The position numbers and the translations under genes are program-made. Below are positions 9,832-64,000 of a DNA stretch of 64,000 nt, one piece after another; positions within the stretch are counted from its first letter, which is position 1, and every line of letters begins with the position of its first letter. Under the pieces are notes generated by a model, which was given only the letters and a program-made list of their open reading frames with translations, ran no database searches and had not been told where the DNA came from. Source of the DNA: Plumapathes pennacea (taxonomy: Eukaryota > Cnidaria > Anthozoa > Antipatharia > Myriopathidae); contig OZ038467.1 in NCBI GenBank assembly GCA_964036295.1, positions 18,821,670 to 18,885,669 on the forward strand, read 5' to 3'.

Positions 9832-9984
9832 CTTAAGAAACAGTTGGTGAGTTAGATTACTTGTTGTATTTAAGTAAATTATACTTAGTAGTCTAGCCTA
9901 TAATCCTTAAGAGTGTGGTCATTCAAGATTACATTCTCACGGCACTGCTTGTCTTGTACAATTCCACTAGATTGTAGAAAATCT

Positions 9985-10742
9985 CAAAATACCCAGAGTA
10001 GATCCAAAAGACTCAAAAGAGTGTAAATATTAAACTAACAGACTTCATAGTGCATAAGCCAAGGTTAACTGTAAGCCTTCCAGCCCATCCGTATCTAAAA
10101 AAAATGAGTTCTTTTTTGTGATCATTCGAAGTTAGTCACCGCCATCGAAAACCTCAAAATATCTACAGCAGATCCAAAAGACTCGAAGAGTTTAAATATT
10201 AAACTAACAGACTTCATAGTGCATAAGCCAAGGTTAACTGTAAGCCTTCCAGCCCATCCGTATCTAAAAAAAATGAGTTCTTTTTTGTGATCATTCGAAG
10301 TTAGTCACCGCTATCGAAAACCTCAAAATATCTACAGCAGATCCAAAAGACTCGAAGAGTTTAAATATTAAACTAACAGACTTCATAGTGCATAAGCCAA
10401 GGTTAACTGTAAGCCTTCCAGCCCATCCGTATCTAAAAAAAAAGAGTTCTTTTTTGTGATCATTCGAAGTTAGTCACCGCCATCGAAAACCTCAAAATAT
10501 CTACAGCAGATCCAAAAGACTCGAAGAGTTTAAATATTAAACTAACAGACTTCATAGTGCATAAGCCAAGGTTAACTGTAAGCCTTTCAGCCCATCCGTA
10601 TCTAAAAAAAATGAGTTCTTTTTTGTGATCATTCGAAGTTAGTCACCGCCATCGAAAACCTCAAAATATCTACAGAAGATCCAAAAGACTCGAAGAGTTT
10701 AAATATTAAACCAACAGACTTCATAGTGCATAAGCCAAGGTT
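9985..10742. repeat. 169-bp tandem satellite, about 4.5 copies
   Basis: The anchor 'tgcataagccaaggttaac' starts at 10051, 10220, 10389, 10558 and, with only its first part intact, 10727: an exact 169-bp period. Copies differ by only a few bases ('ccgccatcg' or 'ccgctatcg'; 'aaaaatgag' or 'aaaaaagag'). Unit A has the same sequence once, at about 3280-3440, so the array is a local amplification of pre-existing sequence. It ends inside the anchor, where the 10743-11924 insertion begins. Confidence 0.95.
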
Positions 10743-11924
10743 AATCATAAATATTACAATTTCCTCGAATGTGATTGGTTCATAAACCCCCCGATTAATC
10801 ATTAATTGGACACCTATTGTTCTGTAATCGGATACTTCTTTGTTCTGTAATCGGACAGTTGGCTTGACCAATCATAAGCAAGAGTGAAATTTAAATGCAC
10901 CAATCAGCGTTACACTGATTTTCAGTGGAAAACTCGATTGCCGGTGTGAGTTTGTGGCTTCTCGAAAGGCGAATTTTGTTAATTCTTGGACAACTTAACA
11001 TGCAAGGAACAGTTTGTGGTCAATCAAAGAACGTGAACAGTCACTATGTAACGAAAGAAGACAGGAAATTTTCGCCGGTCGGGCGCGTTTGTTTAGTTCA
11101 CGACATCGCCAGCATGCTGTGCTACTGACACTCCGAAACTTACGGCTCGGCCAATGTCAATGAACGTCGTTAATTCATTTCAAAATCATGGAAGAAACTT
11201 AACTTTGTTGTGATGGACTGTGATGGACAAACGCTCCTAGAAAATTAAGCCGTCAAGAAATCGGTAAGTTTGTAATTGCTGTGCCGACCCGCTAAGATAC
11301 AGATTTTTTCAGTCTTGAGTATTTCCTTTGAATGCTTTGGAGTAAACTTCAGTGAAAAAAAATAAACTAGTATTCCGAGTTTCAAAGTACCTGTTATGTT
11401 AAAAAATGTAAACCTGAAAAGTCGAAATAAACTGTCTTTCAATTTGTGAGTTCGTGATGGGTTTACTGGTTTTTACCGAGTGTAAAGAACTTACACATTT
11501 TTTACTTTTACTTCAAAAATCCGCATTCAACTCAAATCATTGGGTAAATTAGCTTCTTCTTTCTCTCAAGTATTTTAAGTTGATATAACTGAGAGCTAGA
11601 TAACTACGAACAAGCGGCGTGTTTACAAACGCCGAACCGTGTGTACGCGCGTGTTAAAATAGATCGGCGATGAAGTACTTCTTGATGCTTTGTTTTTATG
11701 TATAGTACAGGAGAAGACGCTGAAGCTATATGATCATTTCATTCTCAGAAATTGTAATATTTATGATTAATTGGTAAGAGGACTTCGTGTCGTCCGATGT
11801 CGGTCTGTAATCATACTCGTGATTACGAAATCAGACTCCCGCGAAGCGCGGTCGTCCGATTTCGTAATCACTCGTATGATTACAGACCGAATCGGACTCC
11901 ACTCAGTCCTATTACCATTATTAA
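10743..11924. mobile_element. Insertion in unit B, with a foldback element at its right end
   Basis: Relative to unit A, 'ggttaactgtaag' is split: the left part ends at 10745 ('ggttaa') and the right part resumes at 11921 ('ttaactgtaag'). TTAA at both borders fits a TTAA target. The interior has motifs 'ctgtaatcgga' near 10820 and 10850. The last 158 bp (11767-11924) is an inverted-repeat element of its own: 'ggtctgtaatcatac' at about 11801 and its complement near 11876, each about 30 bp inside a TTAA border. No transposase frame is visible; the 67-codon ORF at 10925 has no recognisable features. Confidence 0.6.
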
Positions 11925-48369: not shown

Positions 48370-51300
48370 GATTGGTCTTGGAGCTCTACCAGTGGACACA
48401 GAAAACCACAAGGTGGTCAAAGTGCGCAAGCACATCGGCAAGGTAGATAAGTACTTCACGTAACCCTATTATAATGTATCATTATATCAATATAATTATG
48501 TTTATATACATGTGTATTTCTATACGTGCTATCGCTGACCAGGATACTAGGGACTTTAAGCATACCAGAAGGGCGATGGCAACGGAACCAGGAAAAAGTT
48601 TCTTTATATTTCTGTCTTTGTAACTTTGCCTATTTGTAGGTTGCTGCATTTGTTCTGTTTTTGCCGAGGTTGTATTGCATTCATCGTTTCCTACTGAGAA
48701 GAACGATTGTCTTAATTTCTCGAAATGTTGTCCACGTCCTGACAACAACGTAAAAAAGAAGCATTTGAAGTCGCACGCGAGTGCACGACGATCCCGAGAT
48801 CAGATAGTCACGTGCTCCTTTTGTCTTCTGCAATTATTTCCATTGTTTCACCGACGTTGCCGTTGCCGTTGCCGTTGCCGTCCTGGTGCTTAAAGTCCCT
48901 ACTGATGGCTCCGAGACGGAGACCAAACAGACTTATTATGACACAAAAGCACCACATAACTTCGCCTAACAAGCCCCCATTGTCAGTAACTCGTGTGACG
49001 CGTGTTATTCAATTCACTTACTGACTGACTCATTTATTCACCAATACGTACTCGCTCGCTCGGTCGCCCATGCACTCACTTACCTAATCTCTTAGTTAAC
49101 CTGACTCGCTTTCTAATATACTCACTTTCTCATTTTCTTACTCACTTATTCACTCACTCACTTACCTAATCTCTTAGTTAACCTGACTTACCTTCTAATA
49201 TACTCGCTTTCTCATTTTCTTACTCACTTACTCACTTACCTAATCTCTTAGTTAACCTGACTCACTTTCTAATATACTCACTTTCTCATTTTCTTACTCA
49301 CTTACTCACTTACCTAATCTCTTAGTTAACCTGACTCACTTTCTAATATACTCACTTTCTCATTTTCTTACTCACTTACTCACTTACCTAATCTCTTAGT
49401 TAACCTGACTCGTTTTCTAATATACTCGCTTTCTCATTTTCTTATTCACTTACTCACTCACTCACTTACCTAATCTCTTAGTTAACCTGACTCACTTTTT
49501 AATATACTCGCTTTCTCATACCAGTTTCCTTACGAACAGACTTTGCGATATTTTTAAAACAGAATAGATGACGTGACAGAATACGGCAAAAAAAAACAAA
49601 ACAAAACAAAACAACAATAACAACAAAAACCAAAAACAAAAGAACACGATTACCAGCTATTCTGTACACTGCGAATAAATTGCTATTCCGTCAATTCTGC
49701 TATTGGGAGCAGAATGGACGGAACGCTGTTTAGTTTCTTCCGGAATCAGAATAGTTCTCAAAAAAAAAAAAAAAAAAAAAAAAAAAAACGATTATCGTCT
49801 ATTCTGGGATAAGAATAGACGAAATGGTCCCAAAAGAACGCGCCCTTAGCTTCAAAACGACATTCTTGCTTGACTTATACATGAGATTACCCCTTCCCTG
49901 GGTTCATATGACTTTGAGAAGATTCAATCATTCTTATATCAGTTTTACGGCGTGCTAATCCTTTCGCACCAAGTGCAGTCTGATAAAAGGGAATTTTTGT
50001 CACGCTTAGGGCATCAGTATTGAACAGGAGGAGTACAATAATGTGTGGGTAACAAGACGAAGCAAGAGTCCAGTCTTCGCCAAGGTAAAGTCAATTGCAC
50101 AACCCACTAAAAGCAAAACGTTTCATAAAAGTTTTAAGAAGTCACGGTGTTTTACCCAAGCTGCTTTCTGGTTAATTTACATAAATATTATATAATTTAC
50201 AAAAAACTACAATTTTTTTTTTGTGTGTGTTTGAAATAATGTCCACGTGATAAGCTGCGTAATTACTGTACGTGATCTGCGGATAAAACACCAGTTAATT
50301 CTTCCAACCGTTCAAGGAGAAAATCCGTGAGTGATATAGTGAGAATTGACAGTTCAATCAGCTTTCTTTGAGCAAACTATCAACCGCAAAGTTCTCTTTG
50401 CTACATGGTATATCTCTGCTGAGATTATAAAATACGAAGTTTGAAGTGGATCACTCCTGAGAGCGAATAGGTTCAGCATAAACGCAAACGTAGCCTTGAG
50501 AGTAGTCAACTATTTGCAGTTGTTTACCACTTTACTCCCGCTTAGATTCATGGACAATTATACCGTTCAGTCTTTCACTGCTCAGTTGAAAGCTTAGCCT
50601 TGTGAATAGTCAACTATTTCAGACCAAAATTTGCGATTTTCGACCCCATTTCAGACCAAAATGTGCAATTTTTGACCCTATTTCAGACGAAATATCAAAA
50701 TCTCCGACCCTATTCCAGACCAAAGACTCAAAATCGATACCCTATTTCAGACTAAAGTGCTGAAAATGATACCTTTTGGGGCGGCACATTCCTATATGGC
50801 TCATATATGGGAGTACCCCCCTCCCCACCCGGGGGTTCACTTTGAGCAGTGCTGCAATCAACAGTGCGAGACATCGCCTTTGCCACTTGTTTGCTTACGT
50901 GAGATGATCGCAATCGGGTTTTGCTTTTGTTTTTGATTGGCCAAACGCAAAGCAAAAGTAATCCTGCGATTACTTTCAGCAGTAATCTTAAAAGCGTTAA
51001 CCCTTTCACTCCCAAGCTCAAAATACAAATTCCCCCAACCTTAAAATAAGAAAATATATGAGTGAGGAAATGAGAATTGATGTTTTAACCAGCTGTCATT
51101 TGTCCAAGGTATCAAATACCAAATTCTCCATATACTGTATGATATATCTGGTGGGAGACTGAAAAGAGAAAATTGAAGTTGGTCACTCTTGGGAGTTGAA
51201 AGCGTTAACTTCGAAGATTACTCTTCCTTGTTACTGTATTTTTCATATGTTTAAAAGTCAGGGTGACCCTTTTTGTTATTTTCAGGGAAGTTTTCTATCG

Positions 51301-54002
51301 GTGGAAGTGATGGCCAAGAAAGGAATAGTAGGTTGGTTGTGATCGTCCGGGTTAGAGTAGTCTCCAGAAAGACTGTTGTTGGTGACTGACGTTTCGACTA
51401 CCTGAGCGGAAGTCATCTTCAGAGTCAAGTGAAAAGTATTCGTCAGATGGCGGTATATATGTCTCTGGTCGTAGAAGTGATTGGTCCGTTATGTCGGCCT
51501 ATGGTTGGTCGAGTCGGCTGGGTTGTGTTGATGTTGTTGATGTCAGTTGATGTTCTTTTGTCCTGTTGATTAGTCTATTGTTCGTTCGGTTGCGTTTGAT
51601 GTCATCTATCAGTCGTTTGTAAGGTGCCGGTAATTGTTGGCATCTGTTGAGAGGTTTCCGAGAAGTTTGTGTACCAGCTTTCCAGTGTAAGTCGTTGGTA
51701 GTAGTTGGTACTGTGGCTGATGCATTCAGCAGAGTCCCAGTTGATGTCGTGTTTAGTCTGTCGGTGGTGTTCAGAAATGTGATTTCTGATGTCGCCGTTT
51801 CTGGTAGCTCGTTTGTGTTCAGTAAGTCTCGTGTTCAGGTTTCTGCCAGTTTCACCGATGTAGGTGGCTTTGCAGTCAGTACAAGATATTCTGTATACTG
51901 TTCCCTGTCTGTTGATGGGTTCGTCTTTGTCCTTTACGTTGGTCAGTAAGTCGCGTAGAGTCGTGATGGGTTTGTGGGCTACCCGGATGTTGTAGGGTCG
52001 TAGAATACGTGCTATCGTCTCAGAGGTGCCTCTGATGTACGGTAGTGTGGCCAAGGTCAATGGAGTTGTGTCGTCAGTGGTTTCGTTGTCGGTAGTCTCG
52101 TTGGGTGCGGTGTTCTTGTGAGTGTTGCGTTTGACAAAATTAGGGTCGTAGTCGTTCTTCTGGAAAACGCGTTCCAGGTGTCGGGTCTCGTTAAGTAAGT
52201 CGTCGGGAGAGTCACAAAGTAGTTGCGCTCGTTTCGTCAGCGTTTTGATCGTGATAGCCTTGTGTTAAGTAGGGTTGTAAGAAGTCTGGTCAAGTAGTCT
52301 GTCAGTGTGTGTTGGTTTTCTGTAGACTGTTGTTCGTAGCCTGTCGTTGTCGTGGCTCACGAGGCAATCTAAGAACGGAAGTTTTCCGTTGTCTTTTATT
52401 TCCTTAGTGAACTGTATGTCAGGGTTTTGGTCGTTCAGGTGTTTGTGGAAGGAGTCAATGTCGTCTTTGTGTACAGCAGTAAACGTGTCGTCAACGTACC
52501 GTAGCCAGATAGGCAGCGTTTGTTCGTAGGTTGCAAGGGCGCGTTCTTCGATGTGTTGCATCACAATTTATGCTACAATAACAGAGACCGGTGAACCCAT
52601 TGCTGTTCCGTGTAGTTGTCGGTAGTGTTTTCCATTGTACTGGAAGTACGTGGAAGTCAAGCATAGAGTTAGTAACTCCATGACGTCTTTTGTCGGTAAG
52701 GGTAGTTTGGTTAGTTTACGAATACTTTTCACTTGACTCTGAAGATGACTTCCGCTCAGGTAGTCGAAACGTCAGTCACCAACAACAGTCTTTCTGGAGA
52801 CTACTCTAACCCGGACGATCACAACCAACCTACTGTTCACACTCCTGGGTTCAAACCATTTGCCAAGAAAGGAATACTACCGCTTAAGAAGGCCGCAAGG
52901 TAACAAGCCTGACCTAAATATTTACAAGGGTTTTCACAGCCCGCTTTTCTTGTATGCGGCTATGTTTATGCCATTAACGATACAAGGGCGCAGTTGGCTG
53001 ATCTCTGTTTCCTAGGAAGCAATTTTTTTATGGCAGAGGTCCACAGGCCGTGCTAATAGGGAGCTTAAGCAAACTAGGACGGCGACGGCAACGCGAAGAA
53101 CCAGGAAAAAAAGTGTCTCCGCATTCCTTATATGTCTTCGTAACTTTGCCTACTCTTAAAATGCTCAAATTTGTTCCGTTTTTGCCGAAGTTCTATTGGT
53201 TTTATCGTCTCTTACTATACTAAGAAGAACGACTGTCGTAATTTTTAATCAAAGCTGCGTGGCCACTGTAAGGTCGCCCATATATGTTATACTGCCTGAT
53301 CGGGATTAATTTTTTGCACCAAAGTAAGAGAAATTTGTTTGCGCAAAATCTGAGCAATCTGGTACCCAGACCCTCCAATGTGCACGAAACTCGAAGGGTG
53401 GGAGGACGTTTTAAGAATTGGATCGCTAGTTGAACCCGTCAAGGGTAATCTAGTTTAAATAGATCTCTGTAGTGCAAAGACGACCGGGAAAAGTACCAAC
53501 GGCCAGAAATGGCGAGCTTTCTCGAACGATGAAGTTGCAGGGACCCAGTTGATTTGGCGTTGCCAGTGAGCTTGCGGCGTGAGTTGCGTGGAGACCAGAA
53601 TATACTAAAATGGACAGAAGGGACAAGAGCGGAACTCTCAAGAGAGATTTCAGTTTCTCACCAGAAAAATATCTCACAGCATAGATAACTTGGCTTTTGA
53701 CACCTTCCTCCAATGAAACCTGACTAAACTATAAATTATCACTACAACACTCATACACTTGCTTCTTGAAGGTTGAGCTTCTCTGCATTTTGAGCTTAGG
53801 AGCAAAAGTGTCAGCCGGCAAGAAAAGCTGAGTAATGCGTGACATATATTTTTATGCACAATCGATTTTGGCAGTTTGACCTTCGCTTCAATACTTATCT
53901 ATTCCTTTTATTAACTGAATGCGTTTCTTCTCTCAGGCTTCAGAGTATTCGTGCGACAAGAAGGGGTATTAGACTCAAAATCGGCCATCTTTCTCGCTCA
54001 AG
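48370..54002 (+). CDS. Unrecognised gene: three phase-linked exons before the array
   Basis: Exon a, 48370-48442 (acceptor 'cattcttag', donor AAG|gtagat), reads IGLGALPV ... VVKVRKHIGK and ends in phase 0. Exon b, 51286-51327 plus 52877-52899 with a transposon between (acceptor 'ttattttcag', donor AAG|gtaaca), reads GSFLSVEVMAKKGI then LPLKKAA and ends in phase 2. Exon c, 53937-54002 (acceptor 'cttctctcag', donor AAG|gtaggc), reads LQSIRATRRGIRLKIGHLSR. In exon b only this frame is open, and it fits the phase of both neighbours, independent support for the model. The product is strongly basic. Exon a starts in phase 2, so at least one upstream exon is missing from the model. In exon c the frame meets TAG right at the donor, so it could instead be the last coding exon. 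Function unknown. Confidence 0.6.
48550..48899. mobile_element. 350-bp inverted-repeat element with TA target duplication
   Basis: Ends 'gggactttaagca' and 'tgcttaaagtccc', with inner ends rich in 'ggcaacgg' and 'ccgttgccgttgcc'. TA flanks both sides (48548-48549, 48900-48901). Half-copies lie at about 25518-25690 (right half) and 53055-53240 (left half, start 'gggagcttaagca'). Confidence 0.85.
49060..49520. repeat. 74-bp minisatellite, about six copies
   Basis: 'cctaatctcttagttaacc' starts at 49083, 49165, 49239, 49313, 49387 and 49469: spacing 74 bp, or 82 bp where an extra 'tcactcac' is present. It lies in the intron between exons a and b of the array gene. Confidence 0.95.
49521..50611. 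other. Intronic, no gene
   Basis: Contains a CAAAA-rich tract (49590-49640), a poly-A run of about 30 (49759-49788) inside a degenerate inverted repeat of 'attctg' motifs, and otherwise unremarkable AT-rich sequence. Confidence 0.6.
50612..50836. mobile_element. 'ttcagaccaaaa' repeat element, copy 4 (left-truncated)
   Basis: Starts inside the tandem body ('actatttcagaccaaaa'), without the 'gtgccgcccg' left end. The right end 'ggggcggcacattcc' with 'atgggagtacccccc' is present. Confidence 0.75.
51328..51443 (-). repeat. Inverted arm of the Penelope-like element (3' end)
   Basis: Read on the minus strand, this is the element's 3' terminus. It matches 52719-52833 on the plus strand almost exactly. 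It includes 'ctgaagatgac' and, 18 bases after its start, 'gtcgaaacgtc', resembling the CUGANGA and GAAA core of hammerhead ribozymes reported in Penelope-like elements. A short gact/agtc stem fits between them. Confidence 0.85.
52719..52833 (+). repeat. Inverted arm of the Penelope-like element (5' side)
   Basis: Second arm, opposite orientation, joined directly to the truncated RT frame at 52719. About 28 further bases ('tgttcacactcctggg...') precede the target duplication. Confidence 0.85.
52900..53936. other. Intron between exons b and c
   Basis: Holds the left half of the 350-bp element (53055-53240). The rest shows no repeat or gene. The 87-codon minus ORF at 53450 has no recognisable feature. 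Confidence 0.5.
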
Positions 54003-57000
54003 GTAGGCTATACACTTTGTAATTTTTAAAATTCGCTGGGCATTCTCATTATAACTTTGGGATCGTTTGAACACTAGGAGAGAGCTTCCGTGTACTATAA
54101 AGGTGCTTGAAATCTGCGATTGTTTCGATTTCATAGAACCAGGCCCGAGTTGGCAATTAAGATCTATCAATCATGCTATAGAACTATGTATGTCAGCTCT
54201 AGATAGTAATTTACAGGTGAAACCGATGATTATTTGCAGGGAAATCACTGCGACAAGAAGGGGTATTAGACTCAAAATCGGGCATTTTTCTCCCTCAAGG
54301 TAGGGTATAGACTTTGTACATTTAAATTTCGCTCGGCATTCTTGTTAGAACTTTAGGATCGTTTGAATACTTCAAAGAGTTTTCTTGTACTATAAAGAAG
54401 GTTTAAGTCTGCAATATTTTCCATTTCACACAGCTAGGCCCGAGAAATAAGAGCAAATCATCGACAAAAGTTTGCGGCTTTTCAAGCATAGAGAGGTTCA
54501 AGGTATGCATTTTTGTCTTGTGATATCTGTACAAATACAAGTTGGCAATTGGAATTTATAAATCATTCTATAGAACTATGTATGGTAGTTCTAGACGGTG
54601 ATTTACAGGTCAAACCGATGATTATTTACAGGGAAATCACTGCGACAAGAAGGGGTATTAGACTCAAAATCGGCCATTTTTCTCCCTCAAGGTACGGTAT
54701 AGACTTTGTACTTTGAAATTCTCTCGGCATTTTTATTAGAACTTTAAGATCGTTTGAATATTTCAAAGAGTTTTCTTGTACTATAAAGAAGGTTTAAGTC
54801 TGCAATATTTTCCATTTCACACATCCAGGCCCGAGAATTAAGAGAAATTCGTCGACCAAAACTTCGCCGCATTTCAAGCATAGAGGAGTTGAAGCTATAT
54901 GTTTTTGTCGTCTGATATCTGCACAATTACAAGTTAGCAATTAAGATCTATAAATCATTCTATAGAACTATGTATGTTAGCTCTAGACGGTGATTTACAG
55001 GTCAAACCGATGATTATTTACAGGGAAATCACTGCGACAAGAAAGGGTATTAGACTCAAAATGGGGCATTTTTCTCGCTCAAGGTAGGGTATAGAGTTTG
55101 CACTTTGAAATTCGCTCGGCATTCTTATTATAACTTTGGGATCGTTTTAACACTTGGAGAGAGCTTCCGTGTACTATAAAGGAGCTTCAAATCTGCGATT
55201 ATTTCGATTTCATAGAACCAGGCCCGAGAATTAAGAGAAATTCGTCGACCAAAACTTCGCCGCATTTCAAGCATAGAGGAGTTGAAGCTATACGTTTTTG
55301 TCGTCTGATATCTGCACAAATGCAAGTTGGCAATTAAGATCTATAAATCATGCTATAGAACTATGTATGTTAGCTCTAGATAGTAATTTACAGGTGAAAC
55401 CGATGATTATTTGCAGGGAAATCACTGCGAGAAGAAGGGGTATTAGACTCAAAATCGGGCATTTTTCTCGCTCAAGGTAGGCTATAGAGTTTGTACTTTT
55501 AAATTTCGCTCGGCATTCTTGTTATAACTTTAGGATCGTTTGAATACTTCAAAGAGTTTTCTTGTACTATAAAGAAAGTTTAAGTCTGCAATATTTTCCA
55601 TTTCACACAGCCAGGCCCGAGAAATAAGAGCAAATCATCGACCAAAAGTTTGCGGCTTTTCAAGCATAGAGAGGTTCAAGCTATGCATTTTTGTCTTGTG
55701 ATATCTGTACAAATACAAATTGGCAATTGAAATTTATAAATCATTCTATAGAACTATGTATGTTAGCTCTGGACAGTGATTTACAGGTCAAACCGATGAT
55801 TATTTACAGGGAAATCACTGCGACAAGAAGGGGTATTAGACTCAAAATCGGGCATTTTTCTCCCTCAAGGTAGGGTATAGAGTTTGCACTTTGAAATTCG
55901 CTCGGCATTCTTATTATAACTTTGGGATCGTTTGAACACTTGGAGAGAGCTTCCGTGTACTATAAAGGAGCTTCAAATCTGCGATTATTTCGATTTCATA
56001 GAACCAGGCCCGAGAATTAAGAGAAACTTGTTGACCAAAACATCGCCGCATTTCAAGCATAGAGGAGTTGAAGCTATACGTTTTTGTCGTCTGATATCTG
56101 CACAAATACAAGTTGGCAATTAAGATCTATAAATCATGCTATAGAACTATGTATGTTAGCTCTAGACAGTGATTTACAGGTCAAACCGATTATTATTTGC
56201 AGGGAAATCACTGCGACAAGAAGGGGTATTAGACTCAAAATCGGGCATTTTTCTCGCTCAAGGTACGGTATAGACTTTGTACTTTGAAATTCTCTCGGCA
56301 TTTTTATTAGAACTTTAAGATCGTTTGAATATTTCAAAGAGTTTTCTTGTACTATAAAGAAGGTTTAAGTCTGCAATATTTTCCATTTCACACATCCAGG
56401 CCCGAGAATTAAGAGAAGTTCGTCGACCATAACTTCGCCGCATTTCAAGCATAGAGGAGTTGAAGCTATATGTTTTTGTCGTCTGATATCTGCACAATTA
56501 CAAGTTAGCAATTAAGATCTATAAATCATTCTATAGAACTATGTATGTTAGCTCTAGACGGTGATTTACAGGTCAAACCGATGATTATTTACAGGGAAAT
56601 CACTCCGACAAGAAAGGGTATTAGACTCAAAATCGGGCATTTTTCTCCCTCAAGGTAGGCTATAGAGTTTGTACATTTAAATTTCGCTCGGCATTCTTGT
56701 TAGAACTTTAGGATCGTTTGAATACTTCAAAGAGTTTTCTTGTACTATAAAGAAGGTTTAAGTCTGCAATATTTTCCATTTCACACAGCTAGGCCCGAGA
56801 AATAAGAGCAAATCATCGACCAAAAGTTCACGCCTTTTCAAGCATAGAGAGGTTCAAGCTATTCCTTTTTTTTCTTGTGATATCTGTAATTGGCAATTGA
56901 AATTTATAGAAGCTGGCAATTAAGATCTATAAATCATGCTATAGAAGTATGTATGTTAGCTCTAGATAGTAATTTACAGGTGAAACCGATGATTATTTGC

Positions 57001-60000
57001 AGGGAAATCACTGCGACAAGAAGGGGTATTAGACTCAAAATCGGGCATTTTTCTCCCTCAAGGTAGGGTATAGAGTTTGTACATTTAAATTTCGCTCGGC
57101 ATTCTTGTTAGAACTTTAGGATCGTTTGAATACTTCATAGAGTTTTCTTGTACTATAAAGAAGGTTTAAGTCTGCAATATTTTCCATTTCATACAGCCAG
57201 GCCCGAGAAATAAGAGCAAATCATCGACCAAAAGTTTCCGGCTTTTCAAGCATAGAAAGGTTCAAGCTATGCATTTTTGTCTTGTGATATCTGTACAAAT
57301 AGAAGTTGGCAATTGAAATTTATAAATCATTCTATAGAACCATGTATGTTAGCTCTGGACAGTGATTTACAGGTCAAACCGATGATTATTTACAGGGAAA
57401 TCACTCCGACAAGAAGGGGTATTAGACTCAAAATCGGGCATTTTTCTCCCTCAAGGTAGGGTATAGAGTTTGCACTTTGAAATTCGCTCGGCATTCTTAT
57501 TATAACTTTGGGATCGTTTGAACACTTGGAAAGAGCTTCCGTATACTATAAAGGAGCTTCAAATCTGCGATTATTTCGATTTCATAGAACAAGGCCCGAG
57601 AATTAAGAGAAATTTGTCGACCAAAACATCGCCGCATTTCAAGCATAGAGGAGTTGAAGCTATACGTTTTTGTGGTCTGATATCTGCACAAATACAAGTT
57701 GGCAATTAAGATCTATAAATCATGCTATAGAAGTATATATGTTAGCTCTAGATAGTGATTTACAGGTCAAGCCGATGATTATTTGCAGGGAAATCACTGC
57801 GAGAAGAAGGGGTATTAGACTCAAAATCGAGCATTTTTCTCGCTCAAGGTAGGCTATAGAGTTTGTACATTTAAATTTCGCTCGGCATTCTTGTTAGAAC
57901 TTTAGGATCGTTTGAATACTTCATAGAATTTTCTTGTACTATAAAGAAGGTTTAAGTCTGCAATATTTTCCATTTCACACATCCAGGCCCGACAATTAAG
58001 AGAAATTCGTCGACCAAAACTTCGCCGCATTTCAAGCATAGAGGAGTTGAAGCTATATGTTTTTGTCGTCTGATATCTGCACAATTACAAGTTAGCAATT
58101 AAGATCTATAAATCATTCTATAGAACTATGTATGTTAGCTCTAGACGGTGATTTACAGGTCAAACCGATGATTATTTACAGGGAAATCACTCCGACAAGA
58201 AGGGGTGTTAGACTCAAAATCGACCATTTTTCTCCCTCAAGGTAGGGTATAGAGTTTGCACTTTGGAATTCGCTCGGCATTCTTATTATAACTTTAGGAT
58301 CGTTTTAACACTTGGAGAGAGCCTCCGTGTACTATAAAGGAGCTTCAAATCTGCGATTATTTCGATTTCATAGAACAAGGCCCGAGAATTAAGAGAAATT
58401 CATCGATCAAATGTTCGCCGCACTCAAGCATAGAGGAGTTGAAGCTATATGTTTTTGTCGTCTGATATCTGCACAAATGCAAGTTGGCAATTAAGATCTA
58501 TAAATCATGCTATAGAACTATGTATGTTAGCTCTAGATAGTGATTTACAGGTGAAACCGATGATTATTTGCAGGGAAATCTCTGCGACAAGAAGGGGTAT
58601 TAGACTCAAAATCGGGCATTTTTCTCCCTCAAGGTAGGCTAAAGAGTTTGTACATTTAAATTTCGCTCGGCATTCTTGTTAGAACTTTAGGATCGTTTGA
58701 ATACTTCATAGAATTTTCTTGTACTATAAAGAAGGTTTAAGTCTGCAATATTTTCCATTTGATGCAGCCAGGCCCGAGAAATAAGAGCAAATCATCGACC
58801 AAAAGTTTGCGGCTTTTCAAGCATAGAGAGGTTCAAGCTATGCATTTTTGTCTTGTGACATCTGTACTTGGCAATTGAAATTTATAGCTCATTCTATAGA
58901 ACTATGCATATTAGCTCTACAGAGTTATTTACAGGGAAATCAGTGCGACAAGAAGGGGTATTAGACTGAAAATTGGCCATTTTTTTCGCTCAAGGTAGGC
59001 TATAGAGTTTGTACATTTAAATTTCGCTCGGCATTCTTCTTAGAACTTTAGGATCGTTTGAATACTTCAAAGAGTTTTCTTGTACTATAAAGGTTTAAGT
59101 CTGTAATATTTTCCATTTCACACAGCTAGGCCCGAGAAATAAGAGCAAATCATCGACCTAAAGTTTGCGGCTTTTCAAGCATAGAGAGGTTCAAGGTATG
59201 CATTTTTGTCTTGTGATATCTGTACAAATACAAGTTGGCAATTGAAATTTATAAATCATTCTATAGAACTATGTATGTTAGCTCTAGACGGTGATTTACA
59301 GGTCGAACCGATGATTATTTATAGGGAAATTACTGCGACAAGAAAGGGTATTAGACTCAAAATCGGGCATTTTTCTCCCTCAAGGTAGGGTATAGAGTTT
59401 GCACTTTGAAATTCGCTCGGCATTCTTATTATAACTCTGGGATCGTTTTAACACTTGGAGAGAGCCTCCGTGTACTATAAAGGAGCTTCAAATCTGCGAT
59501 TATTTCGATTTCATAGAACCAGGCCCGAGAATTAAGAGAAATTCGTCGACCAAAACTTCGCCGCATTTCAAGCATAGAGGAGTTGAAGCTATACGTTTTT
59601 GTCGTCTGATATCTGCACAAATACAAGTTGGCAATTAAGATCTATCAATCATGCTATAGAACTATGTATGTCAGCTCTAGATAGTAATTTACAGGTGAAA
59701 CCGATGATTATTTGCAGGGAAATCACTGCGAGAAGAAGGGGTATTAGACTCAAAATGGGGCATTTTTCTCGCTCAAGGTAGGCTATAGAGTTTGTACATT
59801 TAAATTTCGCTCGGCATTCTTGTTAGAACTGTAGGATCGTTTGAATACTTCAAAGAGTTTTCTTGTACTATAAAGAAGGTTTAAGTCTGCAATATTTTCC
59901 ATTTCACACAGCTAGGCCCGAGAAATAAGAGCAAATCATCGACCAAAAGTTCACGCCTTTTCAAGCATAGAGAGGTTCAAGCTATGCATTTTTGTCTTGT

Positions 60001-63000
60001 GATATCTGTACAAATAGAAGTTGGCAATTGAAATTTATAACTCGTTCTATAGAACTATGTATATTAGCTCTAGACAGTGATTTACAGGTCAAACCGATTA
60101 TTATTTACAGGGAAATCACTGCGAGAAGAAGGGGTATTAGACTCAAAATCGGGCATTTTTCTCGCTCCAGGTAGGCTATAGAGTTTGTACATTTAATATT
60201 CGCTCGGCATTCTTCTTAGAACTTTGGGATCGTTTGAATACTTCAAAGAGTTTTCTTGTTCTATAAAGAAGGTTTAAGTCTGCAATATTTTCCATTTCAC
60301 ACAGCTAGGCCCGAGAAATAAGATCAAATCATCGACCTAAAGTTTGCGGCTTTTCAAGCGTAGAGAGGTTCAAGCTATGCATTTTTGTCTTGTGATATCT
60401 GTACAAATAGAAGTTGGCAATTGAAATTTATAAATCATGCTATAGAACTATGTATGTTAGCTCTGGACAGTGATTTACAGGTCAAACCGATGATTATTTA
60501 CAGGGAAATCACTGCGACAAGAAGGGGTATTAGACTCAAAATCGGGCATTTTTCTCCCTCAAGGTAGCCTATAGAGTTTTTACTTTTAAAAATTCGCTCG
60601 GCATTCTTGTTAGAACTTTGGGATCGTTTGAACATTTGGAGAGAGTTTCCGTGTACTATAAAAGAGCTTCAAATCTGCGATTATTTCGATTTCATAGAAC
60701 CATGCCCGAGAATTAAGAGAAATTCGTGGACCAAAACTTCGCAACTTTTCAAGCATAGAGGAGTTGAAGCTATACGTTTTTGTCGTCTGATATCTGCACA
60801 AATACAAGTTGGCAATTGAAATTTATATATCATTCTACAGATCTATGTATGTTAGCTCTAGACGATGATTTACAGGTCAAACCAATGATTATTTACAGGG
60901 AAATCACTGCGAGAAGAAGGGGTATTAGACTCAAAATCGGGCATTTTTCTCCCTCAAGGTAGGGTATAGACTTTGTAATTTGAAATTCGCTCGGCATTTT
61001 TATTAGAACTTTAAGATCGTTTGAATATTTCAAAGAGTTTTCTTGTACTATAAAGAAGGTTTAAGTCTGCAATATTTTCCATTTCACACAGCTAGGCCCG
61101 AGAAATAAGAGCAAATCATCGACAAAAGTTTGCGGCTTTTCAAGCACAGAGAGGTTCAAGGTATGCATTTTTGTCTTGTGATATCTGTACAAATAGAAGC
61201 TGGCAATTGAAATTTATAACTCATTCTATAGAACTATGTATATTAGCTCTAGATAGTGATTTACAGGTCAAACCGATGATTATTTACAGGGAAATCACTG
61301 CGACAAGAAGGGGTATTAGACTCAAAATCGGGCATTTTTCTCGCTCAAGGTAGGGTATAGAGTTTGTACATTTAAATTTCGCTCGGCATTCTTGTTAGAA
61401 CTTTAGGATCGTTTGAATACTTCAAAGAGTTTTCTTGTATTATAAAGAAGGTTTAAGTCTGCAATATTTTCCATTTCACACAGCTAGGCCCGAGAAATAA
61501 GAGCAAATCATCGACCAAAAGTTCACGCCTTTTCAAGCATAGAGAGGTTCAAGCTATGCATTTTTGTCTTGTGATATCTGTATTTGGCAATTGAAATTTA
61601 TAGAAGCTGGCAATTGAAATTTATGGCTCATTCTATAGAACTATGCATATTAGCTCTACAGAGTGATTTACAGGTCAAACCGATGATTATTTACAGGGAA
61701 ATCACTGCGACAAGAAGGGGTATTAGACTCAAAATCGGGCATTTTTCTCCCTCAAGGTACGGTATAGAGTTTGTACATTTAAATTTCGCTCGGCATTCTT
61801 CTTAGAACTTTAGGATCGTTTGAATACTTCAAAGAGTTTTCTTGTACTATAAAGGTTTAAGTCTGCAATATTTTCCATTTCAGACAGCTAGGCCTGAGAA
61901 ATAAGAGCAAATCATCGACCTAAAGATTGCGGCTTTTCAAGCATAGAGAACTTCAAGGTATGCATTTTTGTCTTGTGATATCTGTACAAATACAAGTTGG
62001 CAATTGGAATTTATAAATCATTCTATAGAACTATGTAAGTTAGTTCTAGACGGTGATTTACAGGTCAAACCGATGATTATTTACAGGGAAATCACTGCGA
62101 CAAGAAGGGGTATTAGACTCAAAATCGGCCATTTTTCTCCCTCAAGGTACGGTATAGTCTTTGTACTTTGAAATTCTCTCGGTTTTTTTATTAGAACTTT
62201 AAGATCGTTTGAGTATTTCAAAGAGTTTTCTTGTACTATAAAGAAGGTTTAAGTCTGCAATATTTTCCATTTCACACATCCAGGCCCGAGAATTAAGAGA
62301 AATTCGTCGACCAAAACTTCGCCGCATTTCAAGCATAGAAGAGTTGAAGCTATATGTTTTTGTCGTCTGATATCTGCACAATTACAAGTTAGCAATTAGG
62401 ATCTATAAATCATTCTATAGAACTATGTATGTTAGCTCTAGACGGTGATTTACAGGTCAAACCGATGATTATTTACAGGGAAATCACTGCGACAAGAAAA
62501 GGTATTAGACTCAAAATCGGGCATTTTTCTCCCTCAAGGTAGGGTATAGAGTTTGCACTTTGAAATTCGCTCGGCATTCTTATTATAACTTTGGGATCGT
62601 TTTAACACTTGGAGAGAGCTTCCGTGTACTATAAAGGAGCTTCAAATCTGCGATTATTTCATAGAACCAGGCCCGAGAATTAAGAGAAATTCGTCGACCA
62701 AAACTTCGCCGCATTTCAAGCATAGAGGAGTTGAAGCTATACGTTTTTGTCGTCTGATATCTGCACAAATACAAGTTGGCAATTAAGATTTATAAATCAT
62801 GCTATAGAACTATGTATGTTAGCTCTAGATAGTGATTTACAGGTGAAACCGATGATTATTTGCAGGGAAATCACTGCGACAAGAAAAGGTATTAGACTCA
62901 AAATCGGGCATTTTTCTCGCTCAAGGTAGGCTATAGAGTTTGTACATTTAAATTTCGCTCGGCATTCTTGTTAGAACTTTAGGATCGTTTGAATACTTCA

Positions 63001-64000
63001 TAGAGTTTCTTGTACTATAAAGAAGGTTTAAGTCTGCAATATTTTCCATTTCACGCAGGCAGGCCCGAGAAATAAGAGCAAATCATCGACCAAAAGTTCA
63101 CGCCTTTTCAAGCATAGAGAGGTTCAAGCTATGCATTTTTGTCTTGTGATATCTGTACTTGGCAATTGAAATTTATAGAAGCTGGCAATTGAAATTTATG
63201 GCTCATTCTATAGAACTATGCATATTAGCTCTACAGAGTTATTTACAGGTCAAACCGATGATTATTTACAGGGAAATCACTGCGACAAGAAAAGGTATTA
63301 GAGTCAAAATCGGGCATTTTTCTCGCTCAAGGTAGGCTATAGAGTTTGTACATTTAAATTTCGCTCGGCATTCTTCTTAGAACTTTAGGATCGTTTGAAT
63401 ACTTCAAAGAGTTTTCTTGTACTATAAAGAAGGTTTAAGTTTGCAATATTTTCCATTTCACACAGCTAGGCCCGAGAAATAAGAGCAAATCATCGACCTA
63501 AAGATTGCGGCTTTTCAAGCATAGAGAGGTTCAAGGTATGCATTTTTGTTTTGTGATATCTGTACAAATACAAGTTGGCAATTGGAATTTATAAATCATT
63601 CTATAGAACTATGTATGGTAGTTCTAGACGGTGATTTACAGGTCAAACCGATGATTATTTACAGGGAAATCACTGCGACAAGAAGGGGTATTAGACTCAA
63701 AATCGGCCATTTTTCTCCCTCATGGTAGGGTATAGAGTTTGCACTTTGAAATTCGCTCGGCATTCTTATTATAACTTTAGGATCGTTTTAACACTTGGAG
63801 AGAGCTTCCGTGTACTATAAAGGAGCTTCAAATCTGCGATTATTTCATAGAACCAGGCCCGAGAATTAAGAGAAATTCGTCGACCAAAACTTCGCCGCAT
63901 TTCAAGCATAGAGGAGTTGAAGCTATACGTTTTTGTCGTCTGATATCTGCACAAATACAAGTTGGCAATTAAGATTTATAAATCATGCTATAGAACTATG
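53937..64000. repeat. About 393-bp tandem array, 26 exon-bearing units, open at right edge
   Basis: The anchor 'gtattagac' (or a close variant) recurs at 53966, 54263, 54655, 55047, 55440, 55833, 56226, 56618, 57026, 57419, 57812, 58205, 58597, 58958, 59348, 59741, 60134, 60527, 60922, 61313, 61720, 62110, 62502, 62889, 63295 and 63688. Spacing is mostly 390-395, with outliers of 297, 361, 387 and 406-408. From the second unit on, a 60-nt exon-like block lies from 23 bases before to 36 bases after each anchor start (for example 54240-54299). All have AG before and GTA after, and none has an internal indel. Two or three sequence subtypes of the remaining about 330 bp ('gatttcatagaaccaggccc' and 'ccatttcacacagctaggcc') are interleaved. 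The roughly 60-codon ORFs on both strands are by-products. Confidence 0.95.

What the first reader, a model, noticed from the sequence alone, without database searches (positions are those of the whole stretch)
53937..64000. Array of at least 26 symmetrical exon-like cassettes, one reading frame open in all
Seen: each unit after the first holds a 60-nt block bordered by AG and GT. No block has an indel, although whole units vary from 361 to 408 bp. One frame is open in all 26; a second is always stopped, and a third is stopped in the unit at 58935-58994. The open frame is the one dictated by upstream exon b. Every junction would be AG|G, so any number of cassettes could be joined or skipped without frame loss. 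The encoded 20-mer is cationic (EITATRRGIRLKIGHFSRSR and variants). Inference: either a gene with a large tandem cassette-exon array, giving a variable-length basic repeat protein, or a satellite seeded from the 3' end of a gene. The TAG directly after each donor leaves the second option open.
Basis: partly seen in the sequence, partly recalled or inferred. Interest (0 to 1): 0.85.

Follow-up and report, generated by a model that had tools for sequence, protein, structure and literature searches.

The report
Noncoding exon-like repeat array
A 393-base stretch that looks like a small exon with its intron has been copied 46 times head to tail in an animal genome, but its open reading frame shows no sign of being protein, so it is most likely a noncoding satellite-like expansion.

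Summary
The array is real: 26 exon-like blocks in the window, 47 in all (46 complete), running about 8 kb past the window edge; a second array on contig C9 has 57. In the window every complete block is 60 nt between AG and GT, without indels, one frame open. The protein reading fails. "Exon b" is mostly the end of a dispersed Penelope-like repeat; "exon c" is a truncated unit. Changes in the block are 31 nonsynonymous to 14 synonymous, the neutral expectation. In C9, 7 of 57 blocks lost a base and 10 of 57 lost GT. Of six single-block loci read, five are stopped in all three frames; one is open. About 76% of 60-nt windows here have an open plus frame. The unit is one piece of a dispersed, duplicated, multi-exon-looking locus that appears noncoding; other pieces carry 1-2 nt indels between subfamilies. 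Left open: within both arrays the block and the 33 nt before it vary about half as much as the rest, which would fit selection on splicing of a noncoding RNA. No transcript data were available.

The parts
53952..64000 (+). Tandem array of a ~393-bp unit (part inside the window); continues to extended position 71974, C6:18893643
   Evidence: TRF period 393; 26 blocks in the window, 47 in the whole array
53943..54002 (+).
54240..54299 (+). First complete 60-nt exon-like block (AG before, GT after); 24 more follow in the window at 54632, 55024, 55417, 55810, 56203, 56595, 57003, 57396, 57789, 58182, 58574, 58935, 59325, 59718, 60111, 60504, 60899, 61290, 61697, 62087, 62479, 62866, 63272, 63665
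56170..56202 (+). Example of the 33 nt before a block (acceptor and presumed branch-site region), which together with the block is the least variable part of the unit
   Evidence: pi 0.050 (C6 array) and 0.017 (C9 array) against 0.120 and 0.091 in the other 300 columns
52741..52869 (+).
   Evidence: 39 other places in the genome at 97-100% identity over at least 126 nt (40 of 1692 candidates scored); a 99% copy (125 bp) also lies right of the array
51602..52264 (-). ORF with a GIY-YIG domain, taken as a remnant of a Penelope-like retroelement left of the array
   Evidence: PF01541, E 1.1e-5; the name Penelope-like is recalled, not from a call

Best explanation
A noncoding tandem amplification. 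The ~393-bp unit (about 330 bp of intron-like DNA plus a 60-nt exon-like block) occurs once or twice in other copies of a larger, multi-exon-looking but apparently noncoding locus, whose flank is dispersed over at least seven contigs. At two loci (this one and C9) unequal exchange or a similar process multiplied the unit to 46 and 57 copies. Shown: the copies, the boundaries, the shared right flank, and loss of the reading frame in most relatives read. Inferred: the unequal-exchange mechanism, and that the locus was or is transcribed and spliced. If this array is transcribed, the best guess is a long noncoding RNA with a variable number of 60-nt exons. The open frame is a by-product of copying one master sequence.
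For: Codon test: C6 array 19 nonsynonymous to 7 synonymous variants, C9 12 to 7, neutral expectation 0.704 to 0.271; pooled p = 0.62. Leaving out two C9 changes caused by shifted 59-nt copies and one at the donor base, 29 to 13, p = 0.61. No stop among 45 changes has probability 0.32 by chance. In C9, 7 of 57 blocks are 59 nt and 10 of 57 have lost GT; 40 of 57 are intact. Of six single-block loci read, five (L034, L036-L039, nearly identical to each other) are stopped in all frames (frame 0 by direct reading). At two C11 loci the first block is stopped in frames 1 and 2 and the second lacks GT after the block. The C6 right end, C9 left end and both C6b ends lie at unit positions 188-202. The right flank is shared by C6 and C6b, 95-97% over the first ~2.4 kb and 84-90% in longer pieces beyond, and by C9. 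A 371-bp piece of it has 52 matches, some being two pieces of one place (40 of 72 candidates scored). Exon-like pieces of that flank differ by 1-2 nt indels between subfamilies while AG and GT are kept. No protein relative at E <= 10.
Against: Within both arrays the block and the 33 nt before it vary about half as much as the rest (block pi 0.054 and 0.034 against 0.120 and 0.091), and no 60-nt window clear of the block is as low; the segregating-site difference is p = 0.066 in C6 and 0.0025 in C9. In C6, 46 of 46 complete blocks keep 60 nt and GT. Frame 1 is open in the single-block locus at C11:155 kb and in both C6b blocks, in two of three B-type blocks in L027, and in the donor-less second block of L044, so the frame may once have been open more widely. 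No transcript data were available either way.
Confidence: 0.8

Rival explanations
1. A working spliced long noncoding RNA whose repeated 60-nt exon is kept by selection (for example as a repeated binding site), so that array length sets the number of motifs per RNA. (This is a functional version of the best explanation, so the two odds overlap.)
For: Lower diversity of acceptor region plus block in both arrays. 46 of 46 intact splice borders here. Splice-like borders kept in neighbouring exon-like pieces between two subfamily copies. The 33 nt before the block match 31 of 33 between a single-block locus and the C9 consensus.
Against: Between that single-block locus and the C9 consensus the block is only 49 of 60 identical, between the upstream intron (136 of 151) and the downstream intron (98 of 135). 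The block consensus differs at 3 of 60 between the two arrays, against 19 of 300 in the rest. No structure signal in three blocks (z +0.4 to +0.9) or one intron (z +0.2). 17 of 57 C9 units are damaged. No RNA evidence.
Confidence: 0.3
2. A protein gene with a large tandem cassette-exon array encoding a variable-length basic repeat protein.
For: Frame 1 open in 47 of 47 C6 blocks and, read from the donor side, in 57 of 57 C9 blocks; symmetric AG|G joins.
Against: Neutral codon pattern. 59-nt blocks and lost donors in C9. Stops in most relatives read. Reading on in this frame into the next exon-like piece stops at that piece's last codon (direct reading). The upstream exons are a retroelement end and a truncated unit. 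No protein hit (7 candidates, none at E <= 10).
Confidence: 0.04
3. The unit and its flank are internal parts of an unrecognised large mobile element, the arrays being element-internal repeats.
For: Dispersed copies on C4, C6, C7, C9, C10, C11 and C12 in several identity classes, often as convergent pairs.
Against: In 5 of the 16 ORFs of at least 100 aa of L040/L041 that I searched against Pfam, the only hit over its cut-off was 7tm_3 (one more, UL21a, was under its cut-off); the other 11 were not searched. C6b and C6c share about 6 kb of left flank that includes a receptor-gene exon, which looks like segmental duplication. Element ends were not mapped.
Confidence: 0.12
4. A host gene for small nucleolar RNAs, with one such RNA in each intron.
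For: Tandem exon-intron units are the known shape of some such host genes (recalled).
Against: No C/D box pair in either unit consensus by a simple pattern scan, no Rfam match over the gathering score in L009, L013, L015 or L016, no strongly conserved island inside the intron. H/ACA type was not scanned for.
Confidence: 0.02

Closest known systems
Macrosatellite loci that make long noncoding RNA (mouse Firre, Dxz4)
   Same: A tandem head-to-tail duplicated locus, Firre duplicons 92-94% identical, linked to a noncoding RNA (PMC4391730, passages seen)
   Different: Firre duplicons are 3.4 and 6.2 kb and its RNA is measured; here the unit is 0.39 kb with 46-57 copies and no transcript is known
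hsr-omega gene of Drosophila
   Same: A noncoding gene with a long tandem array of 280-bp units (PMC9865238, passages seen)
   Different: In hsr-omega as originally described the array follows two exons and one intron; here each unit carries its own splice-like borders
Ordinary satellite DNA
   Same: Homogenised head-to-tail units, internal subtypes, more than one array of the family in the genome
   Different: The unit is also present once or twice inside copies of a larger dispersed locus and has splice-like borders
Cassette-exon arrays of protein genes (such as Dscam; recalled)
   Same: Tandem exon-intron units
   Different: No codon-level constraint; frame broken in most relatives read

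Membership tests
Satellite or macrosatellite DNA | Head-to-tail near-identical units in long arrays | tested here: met
Satellite or macrosatellite DNA | Changes shared among copies within an array (homogenisation) | tested here: met
   the lost donor (10 of 57) and the 59-nt block (7 of 57) recur in C9 and are absent from 46 of 46 complete C6 blocks
Protein gene with cassette exons | Excess of synonymous changes in the exon | tested here: not met
   31 nonsynonymous to 14 synonymous, p = 0.62 against neutral; 29 to 13, p = 0.61 after removing doubtful sites
Protein gene with cassette exons | Frame kept in homologous copies | tested here: not met
   stopped or shifted in most, though open in C11:155 kb and two of three B-type blocks
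Protein gene with cassette exons | Upstream coding exons specific to the gene | tested here: not met
Long noncoding RNA from a repeat locus | Splice borders kept among copies | tested here: inconclusive
   AG and GT kept in 46 of 46 in C6 and in six of six single-block loci read; GT lost in 10 of 57 in C9 and in the second block of two C11 loci
Long noncoding RNA from a repeat locus | A spliced transcript exists | not testable with these tools
   No RNA data available
snoRNA host gene | C/D box motifs or a known RNA family in the intron | tested here: not met
   (H/ACA type not scanned for)

The most novel reading that the evidence does not exclude
The array makes a spliced noncoding RNA in which one 60-nt exon is repeated up to 46 times, with selection acting on splicing of each cassette, so that repeat number tunes RNA dose or binding capacity.
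Probability: 0.2. Interest if true: 0.6.

Novelty: new member of a known kind. Interest (0 to 1): 0.27.

Why it matters
If only a noncoding amplification, it is a clear example of how a homogenised repeat can imitate a frame-preserving exon array: one open frame and symmetric borders come free when a single master copy is multiplied. If transcribed, it would be a natural series (1, 2, 46 and 57 copies of one exon in one genome) for testing how exon number in a noncoding RNA matters.

Tried and rejected
Protein reading: rejected on the codon test, most relatives, C9 damage and absence of protein hits. Second frame (KSLRQEGVLDSKSGIFLAQ) joined to an upstream exon-like piece U near C6c (L040 7889-7984): rejected, since that frame is stopped in 2 of 47 and 17 of 57 array blocks and in the five L034/L036-L039 loci, and much of U also matches a dispersed repeat. 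Spliced-leader or snoRNA unit: no strongly conserved island downstream of the donor, no C/D box pair, no Rfam match over the gathering score in four loci. RNA structure: none beyond shuffles on the plus strand; the minus strand of one acceptor-plus-block piece gave z -1.65 (9 of 200 shuffles as good), not followed. Organism: not identified; the only named protein relative of a neighbouring receptor exon is from a stony coral, at 39% identity, so a cnidarian-like animal is only a guess. Paper searches: I saw listings only, and none of the titles or abstract starts shown concerned this repeat; of two papers I saw passages. My first report draft called two C11 loci single-block; searches show a second, donor-less block at each, and the text is mended. 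It also said both arrays end alike; one search shows that the C9 right end differs.
Full report
What was checked. The window lies at C6:18821670-18885669 of a 290-Mb, 24-contig genome. I scanned the end of the window, its continuation and three other places for the 60-nt block, allowing 22 mismatches in 63. The C6 array has 47 blocks (26 in the window), all on the plus strand. A second array on C9 has 57. C6:22833083 has two (C6b) and C11:155432 has one. The genome searches behind this scored 40 of 109 candidates and 40 of 168, so whole-genome counts are lower bounds.

In the window 25 of 25 complete blocks are 60 nt with AG before and GT after and no indel; frame 1 is open in 26 of 26. Beyond the window the C6 array stays clean: 46 of 46 complete blocks are 60 nt with GT. 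C9 does not: 40 of 57 are intact, 10 of 57 have AT instead of GT, and 7 of 57 are 59 nt through loss of one base. In my earlier count of C9 the 59-nt blocks passed as open because they were read from the donor side.

How surprising is an open frame? In the first 53.9 kb of the window, 76% of 60-nt windows have at least one open plus-strand frame, and 138 of 179 AG-60-GT pieces are open. Copying one such piece gives an array open in one frame. Among the aligned units, 117 of 393 start positions in C6 and 132 of 393 in C9 give a window with a frame open over 57 nt in all copies. Gap-free 60-nt windows number 20 of 393 in C6 and 153 of 393 in C9; the C9 block counts as gap-free there only because units were cut in the donor-side register, which moved the one-base loss out of the block.

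Is the peptide under selection? Distinct changes from the consensus in frame 1 were 19 nonsynonymous and 7 synonymous in C6 (46 blocks), and 12 and 7 in C9 (57 blocks); the expectation without selection is 0.704 to 0.271. Pooled p = 0.62. Two of the C9 nonsynonymous changes come from the shifted 59-nt copies and one synonymous change is at the donor base; without them the count is 29 to 13, p = 0.61. The chance of seeing no stop among 45 changes is 0.32.

Is the block constrained as DNA or RNA? Within arrays, yes, moderately. Pi is 0.054 in the block, 0.050 in the 33 nt before it and 0.120 in the other 300 columns in C6 (45 units aligned, the truncated first one dropped); it is 0.034, 0.017 and 0.091 in C9 (the 50 units then fetched). 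No 60-nt window clear of the block is as low. Segregating sites are 21 of 60 against 145 of 300 (p = 0.066) and 15 of 60 against 139 of 300 (p = 0.0025). Between loci there is no clear constraint on the block: the two array consensuses differ at 3 of 60 in the block, 3 of 33 before it and 19 of 300 elsewhere, and a single-block locus (L040) matches the C9 consensus at 31 of 33 before the block, 49 of 60 in it, 98 of 135 after it and 136 of 151 in the upstream intron. I cannot tell selection on splicing from local gene conversion.

What the array sits in. The flank right of the C6 array is shared with C6b, 95-97% over the first ~2.4 kb and 84-90% in longer pieces beyond, and is found right of the C9 array. 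By BLAST the C6 array ends at unit position 188 and C6b at 191; C9 begins at 194 and C6b at 202. The other two edges differ: the C6 left edge is cut inside a block, with a retroelement remnant about 1 kb further left, and the last C9 unit stops at position 327. A 371-bp piece of the right flank has 52 matches, near 92-100% and near 77-80% identity, with further short pieces, on C4, C6, C7, C9, C10, C11 and C12 (40 of 72 candidates scored, and some matches are two pieces of one place); seven convergent pairs 8-15 kb apart are visible, and several matches lie within about 200 kb of contig ends. The flank contains exon-like pieces with AG and GT borders; one (C6:18893806-18893863) is 58 nt (direct reading). 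Between one copy of each of two subfamilies these pieces show 1-nt and 2-nt indels while the borders stay, so they do not look coding.

Other block loci. Twelve places outside the two arrays and the C6b pair carry a block. Six single-block loci were read: L034 and L036-L039, nearly identical to each other and stopped in frames 1 and 2 and, by direct reading, frame 0; and C11:155 kb, whose frame 1 is open. At C11:13.02 Mb and C11:14.83 Mb the first block has frames 1 and 2 stopped and frame 0 open; a second, degraded block follows that lacks GT at the end and is shortened at the second locus. Of three B-type blocks in L027 (beside C6b, minus strand), two keep frame 1 open and one, lacking the acceptor, does not. 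C11:12717002 and C11:14817584 were not read, nor was C6:21211669. The open ones run against a simple always-closed story, but fit a 20-codon frame drifting.

The upstream exons. Window 52741-52869, most of the proposed exon b, matches 39 other places at 97-100% over at least 126 nt (40 of 1692 candidates scored); an ORF with a GIY-YIG domain lies beside it on the other strand. I take this as the end of a Penelope-like element (name recalled). Exon c is the first array unit, homologous only from unit position 10.

Verdict. A noncoding tandem amplification of an exon-plus-intron unit from a dispersed, duplicated locus, with transcription unknown. Interesting as a mimic of a cassette array and as a possible repeat-exon noncoding RNA, but ordinary in kind.

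Noticed in passing
L040:6303-6878 (C6:22376302-22376877); also C6:22831054, C6:20331747, C12:83151: A class C receptor (7tm_3) coding match lies about 1.6 kb upstream, on the same strand, of the block at 4 loci; no 7tm_3 match is listed close upstream of the two arrays or of the blocks at C9:86 kb, C6:21.2 Mb, C6:21.7 Mb or on C11.
   Followed up: partly
C6:22378797 and 22387703; C9:17290190 and 17298523; C9:85510 and 76099; C12:80709 and 72243; C6:20334197 and 20342903; C6:21712422 and 21726587; C6:21212126 and 21226677: The flanking sequence family occurs as convergent (tail-to-tail) pairs of two identity classes 8-15 kb apart.
   Followed up: partly
C9:76099-86337, C9:17267283-17298779, C10:76236, C11:85176 and 155350, C12:72243-81537, C7:173835: Many members of the family lie within about 200 kb of contig ends, suggesting spread through subtelomeric exchange.
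   Followed up: no
L040:7889-7984 and dozens of places, many on C5 and C9-C12: An exon-like 96-nt piece near the receptor gene largely matches a dispersed repeat, as a similar split match in dozens of places.
   Followed up: no
L010:2870-3780: Long arrays of tataaaagtc/tatataagtc followed by ggttaaggctaag units right of the array.
   Followed up: no
window 9977-10744 and 49074-49519: Other tandem repeats in the window: a 169-bp unit (4.5 copies, 97%) and a 74/156-bp CTTACTCACTTA unit.
   Followed up: no
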